Virus record (IMG/VR): IMGVR_UViG_3300002180_000059
Span: 1-24,541 of that record
DNA: 24,541 nt
Direction: 5' to 3' (one strand)
Origin: a virus
Below the pieces are notes generated by a model. It was not told where the DNA came from. It saw nothing but the letters and a program-made list of their open reading frames with translations, and did no database searches. The position numbers and the translations under genes were made by a program. Shown here one piece after another: positions 6,622 to 9,678 of the stretch; the stretch's first letter is position 1; every line of letters starts with the position of its first letter.

Positions 6622-8153
6622 TGGACCAGCTCGTTGACCAATTCGGACGCCCGATCAAAGCCAAGGAACTGATCCGGGAACAGGCCGAGCCGGGGATCAC
6701 CTCGGTGCGCCAAGCCTGGTCCCAGACCGTGGCCTCGGGCCTGACCCCGCAACGTCTGGCCAGCATCCTGCGGGCTTGCGATGAAGGCGACATCGAACAG
6801 TTCATGGTGCTGGCCGAGGAGATGGAAGAGCGCGAGCCGCATTACATGTCCGTGCTGGGCATGCGCAAGCGAGCCATCTCTGGTGTGCAGCCTGTGGTGA
6901 CCGCCGCCTCCGAGGATGCGTGCGACGAGAAGATTGCCCAGGCTGTACGCAATCGGATCACCGGGCACGACGGGTTTCACAATCTGATCGAGGACATGCT
7001 CGACGCCCTGGGTAAGGGCTTTTCCGCGACCGAGATCATGTGGAAGCGCAGCGCGACTGAATGGTGGCCTGACAAGTTCAAGCGCCGACCGCAGCAATGG
7101 TTCCAGTTCGACCAGGACACAGGTGAACAAATGCGCCTGCGTGATGAAGAGAACATGATCGACGGCGTGGACCTGAAGCCCGCGAAGTGGATTGTGCATC
7201 GCTCAAAGATCAAGTCTGGCTTGGTGTTCCGGGGTGGTCTGGCCCGCGTGGCTGCCTTCAGTTGGATGTGCAAAGGCTACGCGCAAAAGGACTGGATGGC
7301 CTTCATCGAAACCTATGGTCTGCCGCTGCGCCTCGGGCGCTATGGCCCTGAAGCGACCAAGGAAGACGTGCAGAAACTCTTCACCGCGGTTGCCAATATC
7401 GGCACCGACGCCGCCGCCGTTCTGCCCAATTCGATGGATATCGAGTTCACCGAAAATGCGCGCGGCACAGGTGCGAAGATCTTCGAGGATCTGGCGCGCT
7501 ATGTGGATGAGCAGATTTCAAAGGCGGTGCTGGGTCAGACCATGACCGCCGACAATGGATCGAGCCAAAGTCAGGCCGAGGTCCACAACGAGGTGCGCCA
7601 TGATATCGCGGCCTCAGACGCGCGGGCTGTCTGTGCCACCATAAACCGTGACCTGGTGCGTCCGTTTGTGTCTTTGAACTTCGGCGGCGACGCCTTCCCC
7701 AAGATCTCGATCGAAATCGAGGAGCCGGAAGACACGGACATGATCCTGAAGAACGTCTTCCGGATGGCAAGCGTCGGGGTGAAGTTCAGGCAGGAGGACG
7801 TGCGCCGCAAGCTGAAGATGTCAGATCCCGATGACAACGACGAAATCTTCGGTGACCTCCCAAAGACGGCGCCGGCCACGAACACTGCGCTGAACAACGC
7901 CCAACCCGTCGCTGACCCGATTGATGAGATCGAGGCGGAAATGCTGGACGACTGGGAGGAAGTGATGGGCGACCTGGTTGAGCCGCTCGAGGACGTGATC
8001 GCCGAGGCCACCAGCTACGAGGAGGCGCTGGAAAAGCTCAACGCCGCGATCCCAAGCATGCGTGACAGCAGGCTGATTAACACCCTCGTAAAGGGCATGT
8101 TTAAGGCCCGTTCAATCGGCGATACCGACACGGGCCTCCAGGGCGATGACTGA
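6621..8153 (+). CDS. Portal protein (Mu gp29-like, DUF935)
   Basis: This 510-residue protein forms the dodecameric portal through which DNA enters and leaves the head. It belongs to DUF935 (Mu gp29). The start MDQLVDQFGRPIK is typical, and the ATG at 6621 has AAAAGGA (6606-6612) eight bases upstream, better than the GTGs at 6615 and 6618. Other family marks are MRKRAISG near residue 90, ALGKGFSATEI near 133, the WMCKGYAQKDW and ETYGLPLRLG block, and QSQAEVHNEV in the stem/crown part. The C-terminal 90 residues are acidic. It overlaps the terminase by one base and the minor head gene by 8. Confidence 0.92.
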   Translation: MDQLVDQFGRPIKAKELIREQAEPGITSVRQAWSQTVASGLTPQRLASILRACDEGDIEQFMVLAEEMEEREPHYMSVLGMRKRAISGVQPVVTAASEDACDEKIAQAVRNRITGHDGFHNLIEDMLDALGKGFSATEIMWKRSATEWWPDKFKRRPQQWFQFDQDTGEQMRLRDEENMIDGVDLKPAKWIVHRSKIKSGLVFRGGLARVAAFSWMCKGYAQKDWMAFIETYGLPLRLGRYGPEATKEDVQKLFTAVANIGTDAAAVLPNSMDIEFTENARGTGAKIFEDLARYVDEQISKAVLGQTMTADNGSSQSQAEVHNEVRHDIAASDARAVCATINRDLVRPFVSLNFGGDAFPKISIEIEEPEDTDMILKNVFRMASVGVKFRQEDVRRKLKMSDPDDNDEIFGDLPKTAPATNTALNNAQPVADPIDEIEAEMLDDWEEVMGDLVEPLEDVIAEATSYEEALEKLNAAIPSMRDSRLINTLVKGMFKARSIGDTDTGLQGDD

Positions 8154-9345
8154 GTTCACCGACAAGCCGGACTATGCGTTTGACCCTGGACCGCCGCCGG
8201 AGGTCTCTCGCTACTTCCGCAACAAAGGGATGCGCCCGTCTTTTTCCTGGCTTGATGTCGAACCTGAGGAACATGCGGTCGCCTTCACTGTTGCCAAGGC
8301 CGCAAAGCTGGATGTGGTCGAAGCCATCAAAGTAGAGCTGCAGCGCTCGATCGACGAGGGGCTGCCATTTGAGACCTTCCAGAAGAACCTGCGCCCACGC
8401 CTGCAGACGCTTGGATGGTGGGGCAAGGCAGAAATGACCGACCCTGTCACCGGGGAACTGATCGACGCCCAGCTCGGATCGCCGCACCGCCTGCGCACCA
8501 TCTACCGGGCCAATCTGCGGACGGCGCGCGCGGCCGGGCAATGGGAGCGGATCCAGCGCACAAAGAACGCGCTCCCTTATCTGGAATATCGACTTGGTCC
8601 CAGCGAACGCCACCGGCCTCACCACGAGGACAAGGAATACCTGGTCCTGCCCGTCGATGATCCGTTCTGGCGCAAGTGGATGCCGCCCAATGGCTGGGGC
8701 TGCAAGTGTTGGGTGCGCCAGCTCACCCAGCGCCAGGCAGACGCGCGGGGAGGTGTGAGCGAAAGCCCCGCTGTGCCGACCTCGGAATTCCGCAACAAGC
8801 GCACCGGCGTTGTGACACAGGTCCCCCAGGGCATTGATCCAGGCTGGGATCGCAATCCCGGAGATCTGCGTCTGCGGGCGCTGGAACAGGTGACCGAAGG
8901 CAAACTGATCTCGGCCGACCCGGCTGTCGCGCAGGCAGCGATGCGGGACATGGCGACGAGCTGGCGCGCGGCGCGTGTGCTTTCGGGAAATGCGCCCGGC
9001 ACTGTTCCCGTCACTATGCTGGACGACACGCTTCGGGGTGTCCTGGGAGCGGACACAAGGCAGGTTCTTCTGTCCGATCAGACCGCCATCAAGCAAGGTG
9101 CAAGCCACCCCGAACTGTCGATCGAAGACTATGCCCGCCTAGAAGGCTTGATCCAGTCAGCAGCGGTCTACCAACAGGATGCGCGCAACCTGGTGTTTAT
9201 CGAGAAGGTGGAGGACTTGCCTTGGATCGCAGTAATCAAGGCAACAACCCAGCGTCATGAGCTCTTTTTGACGACTTTCTACCGAGCGAGTTCCGGCCGG
9301 TACGTTCGGCGGCTCCGGGAACGGGGAACTGTGGTAAGGGATTAA
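8146..9345 (+). CDS. Minor head protein F (Mu gp30-like) with probable C-terminal PBECR nuclease domain
   Basis: The first 200 or so residues match the Mu F head morphogenesis family (PF04233). Its hallmark lies at about 157-200: HHEDKEYLVLPVDDPFW, then PPNGWGCKCWVRQL with C186 and C188. Residues about 300-390 are a separate domain (VLLSDQTAIKQ, HPELSIEDYARL, NLVFIEKV, WIAVIKATT, ELFLTTFYRAS). It resembles the PBECR-type (phage barnase/EndoU/colicin/RelE-like) nuclease domains known on the ends of phage head and portal proteins. If so, the protein might carry a nuclease inside the virion or into the host. Bases 9181-9300 count 66 of 120 G+C, lower than the nearby core gene, which suggests an exchanged module. 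Family F is sure; the nuclease call is inferred from pattern. Confidence 0.88.
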   Translation: MTEFTDKPDYAFDPGPPPEVSRYFRNKGMRPSFSWLDVEPEEHAVAFTVAKAAKLDVVEAIKVELQRSIDEGLPFETFQKNLRPRLQTLGWWGKAEMTDPVTGELIDAQLGSPHRLRTIYRANLRTARAAGQWERIQRTKNALPYLEYRLGPSERHRPHHEDKEYLVLPVDDPFWRKWMPPNGWGCKCWVRQLTQRQADARGGVSESPAVPTSEFRNKRTGVVTQVPQGIDPGWDRNPGDLRLRALEQVTEGKLISADPAVAQAAMRDMATSWRAARVLSGNAPGTVPVTMLDDTLRGVLGADTRQVLLSDQTAIKQGASHPELSIEDYARLEGLIQSAAVYQQDARNLVFIEKVEDLPWIAVIKATTQRHELFLTTFYRASSGRYVRRLRERGTVVRD

Positions 9346-9678
9346 GCGCGCCCGGAGGGACGTCACATCCCCCGCGACCCTAGGCCGGTTAGACGGGATA
9401 CTTGGCTCGGGCGCATTCACGAAATAGCCCTTTTAGTGGGTAATTTCAAGCTCAGGCGGGAAATGTGAGGGACCGACCACTCTTAGCTTCGCCGTTAAAC
9501 ACCTATTAAAGGGGTCAGGAGAGGGGTGGACAGATTTTCCGGCCCACCATACCCTACGCCCAGGCGAGGCCAATTTTGACGCCTTGAGCGCGCGCGCCTT
9601 TTTCTCCACCACTCACAACCACCACCCCTGAATTCCTTCAGGGGCGATTGAGCGATCCCAGACGGGCATCTTCGTCCC
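9346..9678. other. 333-base non-coding gap between minor head and protease genes
   Basis: I see no convincing gene on either strand. The gap is lower in GC than its neighbours (30 of 60 at 9421-9480). It contains a GCGCGCGCGCC stretch followed by five T (9588-9603), which could be a weak terminator. A 5-base inverted repeat AGGCG/CGCCT (9562-9566, 9580-9584) overlaps it. The interrupted palindrome copy 2 is at 9625-9644. No clear sigma-70 promoter is visible. The likely content is the end of the lysis/packaging transcript and an activator-dependent promoter for the head operon. I found no tRNA, no attachment site and no remnant gene. Confidence 0.5.
9625..9644. promoter_or_regulatory. Interrupted palindrome, copy 2 (candidate Mor target, PI-like)
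   Basis: CCCCTGAA-TTCC-TTCAGGGG is a perfect 8-base inverted repeat with a 4-base spacer. Its core (9627-9645) has the same arms as copy 1 upstream of the endolysin gene, CCTGAA-N4-TTCAGGGGC, with a different spacer. It is centred about 44 bases before the I-protease ATG. In Mu the PI late promoter lies at the same place. No T run follows, so a simple terminator is less likely. Confidence 0.5.

What the first reader, a model, noticed from the sequence alone, without database searches (positions are those of the whole stretch)
9046..9345. Probable nuclease toxin domain fused to the minor head protein
Residues about 300-390 of the F-like protein are not part of the Mu F core. They resemble PBECR nuclease domains reported on phage head and portal proteins, with HPELSIEDYARL, WIAVIKATT and ELFLTTFYRAS as landmarks. 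A nuclease packaged in the head could be injected with DNA to attack host or rival phage RNA or DNA. I cannot name catalytic residues with confidence.
Basis: partly seen in the sequence, partly recalled or inferred. Interest (0 to 1): 0.6.

Follow-up and report, generated by a model that had tools for sequence, protein, structure and literature searches.

The report
Predicted RNase tail on phage head protein
The minor head protein of this Mu-like phage ends in a swappable domain that looks like a small RNA-cutting enzyme with its predicted active site intact, so it could be packed in the virus head and injected with the DNA; this kind of fusion was already predicted in 2017, so it is a new example and not a new kind.

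Summary
Residues 286-399 of the 399-aa F protein (window 9001-9342) form a separate domain outside the MuF core. It is a divergent member of the phage BECR (PBECR) RNase-like group, nearest PBECR3. Pfam finds PBECR3 at E 7e-4, below its curated cut-off. A profile built only from distant MuF tails, one of them a clear PBECR3 (66 bits), scores it at 61 bits, against at most 9 for 2,000 shuffles. AlphaFold gives pLDDT 92.7 and the BECR order of one helix then four strands. The best solved-structure matches are BrnT, RelE-type toxins, a CdiA toxin and colicin E5, with modest Z (up to 7.1).

The predicted active site is intact: His321, Lys365, Thr377. His321 is the most conserved column of 38 relatives. 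Related MuF proteins end after the core or carry other tails (at least 12 changes on a core tree), so the domain is accessory. No gene follows F that could encode an immunity protein. Some near relatives have lost the active site. Best reading: an injected RNase effector; activity, target and injection are untested. Iyer et al. 2017 predicted this architecture, so: a new member of a known kind.

The parts
8146..9345 (+). F-like minor head protein gene, 399 aa
   Evidence: ORF; Phage_Mu_F E 6.4e-17; PHROG 220 'minor head protein and DNA pilot' E 4.7e-83; follows a Mu portal gene
8323..8715 (+). MuF core (Pfam PF04233 match, res 60-190)
9001..9342 (+). C-terminal PBECR-like (predicted RNase) domain, res 286-399
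   Evidence: PBECR3 E 7e-4; leave-clade-out profile 93.7 bits; AF2 pLDDT 92.7; BECR-fold toxins top the VIA list; BFVD minor capsid / MuF tails E 8e-7
9106..9108 (+). His321, predicted catalytic, at the end of the N-terminal helix (helix 311-320)
   Evidence: most conserved column, H in 26 of 37; at least 90% in A4; position in the models
9238..9240 (+). Lys365 in strand 3 (358-366), probable active-site residue
   Evidence: K in 29 of 38; invariant in A4
9259..9261 (+). Glu372 at the start of strand 4, possible accessory residue
   Evidence: E in 21, G in 11 of 38
9274..9276 (+). Thr377 in strand 4 (373-380), predicted catalytic Ser/Thr
   Evidence: S or T in 29 of 38; matches the strand-4 S/T of PBECR in PMC5512222
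6615..8153 (+). portal protein gene just upstream, as usual for muf genes
   Evidence: Portal_Mu E 3.6e-103; PHROG 113
9346..9678 (+). 333-nt gap without an immunity-gene candidate; the place of the gyrase site in Mu
   Evidence: ORF lists; Mu annotation

Best explanation
The C-terminal domain of F is a PBECR-type, metal-independent endoribonuclease module carried by the minor head protein. Shown here: domain identity to the PBECR/BECR group, intact predicted active site (His321, Lys365, Thr377), fusion to the MuF core behind the portal gene, accessory and switchable status. Inferred: F sits at the portal in the head, as SPP1 gp7 does, is made late, and enters the cell with the DNA. There a few copies would cut host or rival RNA (mRNA, tRNA or CRISPR RNA) early in infection. 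Late expression and sequestration in the virion would explain why no immunity gene is needed.
For: PBECR3 hit E 7e-4. Profiles that leave the window's clade out score it at 93.7 and 60.7 bits against at most 9.3 for shuffles. The SuMu F tail of the same family is a clear PBECR3, 66 bits. AF2 pLDDT 92.7 with helix then four strands, and the same fold inside the full-length model. 18 of the 20 best VIA rows are BrnT, RelE/HigB/YafQ/YoeB/MqsR-type, CdiA or colicin E5 toxins or RelE-like domains. His321 is the most conserved column and Thr377 is Ser/Thr in 29 of 38, the configuration that PMC5512222 gives for PBECR. The tail changes at least 12 times on the core tree and diverges faster than the core in all 11 pairs tested, as expected of a conflict domain.
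Against: The Pfam score is below the curated cut-off (20 of 30 bits). Single PDB matches are modest (Z up to 7.1; no Foldseek hit at E under 0.001). Closest relatives include tails without the histidine (L092, L093) and one without either histidine or Ser/Thr (L002), so the fold can persist without catalysis. Injection of F and any RNase activity are untested. No immunity gene.
Confidence: 0.6

Rival explanations
1. The domain keeps the BECR fold but works without catalysis, as an RNA- or DNA-binding or portal-contact module of the head, as proposed for the inactive tail of Mu F.
For: Tails without the histidine or the Ser/Thr persist in intact ORFs: L002, L045, L046, L048, L092, L093, L077, L080, L081. 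Tail dN/dS stays below 1 where it can be computed, also in the inactive pair L046/L048 (0.11), although dS is near saturation. Mu F has a tail reported as inactive (PMC5512222).
Against: In the window all three predicted active-site residues are kept although the tail is only 37% identical to that of L001 and 49% to that of L076, and His321 is the most conserved column of the family. Many close relatives do without any tail.
Confidence: 0.25
2. It is a MuF polymorphic toxin for competition between bacteria, with a dedicated immunity protein.
For: MuF core plus a variable C-terminal effector fits the architecture of PMC5576092.
Against: No same-strand ORF of 20 aa or more starts between 9346 and 9647, and the relatives with tails of this family that were checked have no consistent small ORF there; the ORF read in one branch (L078) is gene G, Phage_tail_S E 6e-26. 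[quoted passage not shown]
Confidence: 0.08
3. The C-terminus is ordinary MuF structure, a constant part of the protein.
For: Mu F also has a distantly related tail (family profile E 7e-4; hhalign E 6.5e-4 but probability 27%).
Against: Relatives with 44-62% identical cores stop after the core; five tail classes lie on one core tree.
Confidence: 0.04

Closest known systems
PBECR3 (Pfam PF18812), phage BECR-like nuclease 3
   Same: Aligned over model positions 29-110 of 115; fused to MuF, as in Haemophilus phage SuMu (66 bits)
   Different: Scores below the curated cut-off (20 against 30 bits); about 24% identical to the SuMu tail; SuMu lacks the histidine (REGQDF), the window keeps it
MuF_C (PF18819), tail of phage Mu F (gp30)
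   Same: Same position behind the MuF core; weak profile similarity
   Different: Mu's version is reported as inactive (PMC5512222); the window keeps His, Lys and Thr; 13 bits against a cut-off of 27.6
MuF polymorphic toxins (Apk2, Bxa, EFV toxin)
   Same: MuF core plus a swappable C-terminal effector domain in phages
   Different: Different effector activities (alarmone synthetase, ADP-ribosyltransferase); Apk2 and Bxa have neighbouring immunity genes (PMC11699363), this one has none
RelE, BrnT, colicin E5 and CdiA toxins (BECR fold)
   Same: Fold arrangement in the predicted model (VIA Z up to 7.1)
   Different: No detectable sequence similarity, no antitoxin gene, part of a virion protein

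Membership tests
PBECR clade (Iyer et al. [quoted passage not shown]
   AF2 models, pLDDT 92.7; helix 311-320 then strands 340-345, 348-355, 358-366, 373-380
PBECR clade (Iyer et al. [quoted passage not shown]
   His321 directly follows helix 311-320; most conserved column
PBECR clade (Iyer et al. 2017, PMC5512222) | Threonine or serine in the C-terminal strand | tested here: met
   Thr377 in strand 373-380, S/T in 29 of 38
PBECR clade (Iyer et al. 2017, PMC5512222) | Fusion to MuF, portal or other virion proteins | tested here: met
   Phage_Mu_F at res 60-190, gene behind the portal gene
PBECR clade (Iyer et al. 2017, PMC5512222) | RNase activity | not testable with these tools
   needs a bench assay
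PBECR3 (PF18812) | Score at or above the curated cut-off of 30 bits | tested here: not met
   20.0 bits, E 7e-4
MuF_C (PF18819) | Score at or above the curated cut-off of 27.6 bits | tested here: not met
   13.3 bits
MuF polymorphic toxin (PMC5576092) | MuF N-terminal domain with a variable C-terminal extension of at least 100 aa | tested here: met
   tail of 149 aa behind the core; five tail classes on the core tree
MuF polymorphic toxin (PMC5576092) | Small ORF for immunity just downstream | tested here: not met
   333-nt gap without a candidate
MuF polymorphic toxin (PMC5576092) | Temperate phage | tested here: inconclusive
   Mu-like head and tail module; related genes lie in bacterial contigs, but the window was not searched for integration genes
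RelE/BrnT toxin-antitoxin toxins | Small free-standing toxin gene with a cognate antitoxin gene | tested here: not met
   domain of a 399-aa head protein, no antitoxin gene
RelE/BrnT toxin-antitoxin toxins | BECR (RelE-like) fold | tested here: inconclusive
   VIA Z 7.1 to BrnT and 4-6 to many RelE-type chains, below the level of a sure match

The most novel reading that the evidence does not exclude
A capsid-delivered RNase that needs no immunity gene because it is made only late and sealed in the head, and that is repeatedly inactivated, lost and regained as phages meet different hosts, for example to cut CRISPR or other defence RNAs on entry.
Probability: 0.15. Interest if true: 0.6.

Novelty: new member of a known kind. 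Interest (0 to 1): 0.32.

Why it matters
MuF tails of the PBECR group were predicted to be RNases in 2017, and I found no experimental test of one in the papers searched. This subfamily sits below the Pfam cut-off and so is missed by routine annotation. It offers intact and naturally eroded versions on closely related head proteins, a ready-made comparison for testing what such tails do.

Tried and rejected
PDB by sequence: no relative of F; the tail profile gave only two weak, unrelated matches. NCBIfam and PHROGs: no hit for the tail alone except a weak phrog_36985. Foldseek against PDB: no hit under E 0.001. An immunity gene was looked for downstream in the window and in relatives, none found; the downstream ORF read in one branch is gene G. 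My first reading of minus-strand genome loci used the wrong strand and was redone. Two Pfam calls failed on frame errors. dN/dS values are mostly near saturation and only indicative. The gap after F has no DNA match in the phage collection. An association between losing His and losing Ser/Thr looked weak by eye and is not used.

Full report
Observation. F is one ORF at 8146-9345, 399 aa, directly behind a Mu-type portal gene and before the I-type protease gene. Pfam's MuF model covers only residues 60-190.

Identity of the tail. Pfam-A lists PBECR3 (PF18812) for the tail at E 7e-4, 20 bits against a cut-off of 30, and MuF_C at E about 0.1. The evidence is stronger at family level. Relatives were gathered from viral contigs, named phages, bacterial genomes and 395 genomes of one bacterial family, 23 of which carry a match. 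A profile of relatives outside the window's clade finds the tail at 93.7 bits; one from five distant sequences, at least three of them with a Pfam PBECR3 match, finds it at 60.7 bits; the best of 2,000 shuffled tails reaches 9.3 bits. One of those five, the F tail of Haemophilus phage SuMu, is a clear PBECR3 (66 bits). The same family profile touches the tail of Mu F itself at E 7e-4, and hhalign aligns the two families colinearly but weakly (probability 27%).

Fold. AlphaFold gives the tail pLDDT 92.7 and pTM 0.86: a strand and helix, then strand, helix, helix and four strands. The same elements reappear at pLDDT of about 72-91 in the full-length model, whose core is poor. Foldseek against PDB has no match under E 0.001. 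The VIA second look ranks BrnT first (Z 7.1), followed by RelE-type toxins, a CdiA toxin, colicin E5 and others. No single Z reaches 8, but 18 of the first 20 rows are toxins or domains of the BECR kind. Against viral models the five matches under E 0.001 include minor capsid, MuF C-terminal and 'nuclease' proteins.

Active site. Iyer et al. [quoted passage not shown] In 38 aligned tails the most conserved column is His321 (26 of 37). Lys365 is K in 29 of 38, and Thr377 is S or T in 29 of 38. In the model these lie just after helix 311-320, in strand 358-366 and in strand 373-380. The distances between them in the model could not be measured, as coordinates are not given. The window keeps all three. 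Near relatives do not all: in the starred clade of six core sequences, L001 and L076 are intact, L092 and L093 have lost the histidine, and L002 has lost the histidine and the Ser/Thr.

Accessory status. Of the related MuF proteins, many stop 10-40 residues after the core; others carry a MuF_C-type tail or tails with HSH or SHNHPGG motifs. On a tree of the core alone the tail class needs at least 12 changes (quick tree, and the genome hits were chosen for having this tail, so frequencies mean nothing). In all 11 pairs compared the tail is less conserved than the core.

No immunity gene. The 333 nt after F hold only the start of a 57-codon TTG ORF that overlaps the next gene. The gap is similar in L001, L076, phage POA1180 and phage B23. 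In a second branch the next ORF is gene G. [quoted passage not shown] In Mu the same place, behind gene G, holds the gyrase cut site.

Mechanism. I favour an RNase effector packed at the portal vertex and injected with the DNA. Domain identity and intact predicted active site are shown; RNA cleavage, injection and target are inferred from the fold and from the papers named. A non-catalytic role is the main rival, because the fold persists without the active site in several relatives.

Novelty. PMC5512222 already predicted that active PBECR tails of MuF orthologues are RNases. This is a new, divergent member below the Pfam cut-off. The mixture of intact and eroded sites on closely related head proteins is the useful part.

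Noticed in passing
window 9346-9678; L001 4204-4582; L051 4265-4266: A gap without clear genes between F and I in several relatives, at the place where Mu has its gyrase cut site (there after gene G); gene G is missing here.
   Followed up: partly
L038, L039, L053 (tails of MuF); L073: MuF tails with HSH...S..D or SHNHPGG.SFS.ED motifs, resembling JAB-type metalloprotease signatures (by eye); no Pfam hit for L038 and L073.
   Followed up: partly
L040, L041, L070, L071: A further MuF tail class of about 180 aa in Pandoraea and viral contigs, without a Pfam hit for L040.
   Followed up: no
L094 1405-1794; L091 1405-1848; L090; L097: Free-standing short proteins of the same tail family in bacterial genomes (L094 lies between a rimP-like and a proline iminopeptidase-like gene, names by eye); no phage genes or antitoxin seen around L094.
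   Followed up: partly
L098 (G300:C12) and L002/L003/L074/L075: Eroded tail copies: L098 has an in-frame TGA in the matched stretch; Halocynthiibacter namhaensis carries two copies of the prophage gene whose tail has lost the predicted active site.
   Followed up: partly
L054 (PP511318.1, Dulem virus 31): A 35.8-kb record with portal and major capsid genes that is labelled Microviridae, probably a taxonomy error.
   Followed up: no
L052 2501-3610: Unannotated MuF gene with an intact tail of this family in a Helicobacter pullorum prophage record.
   Followed up: no
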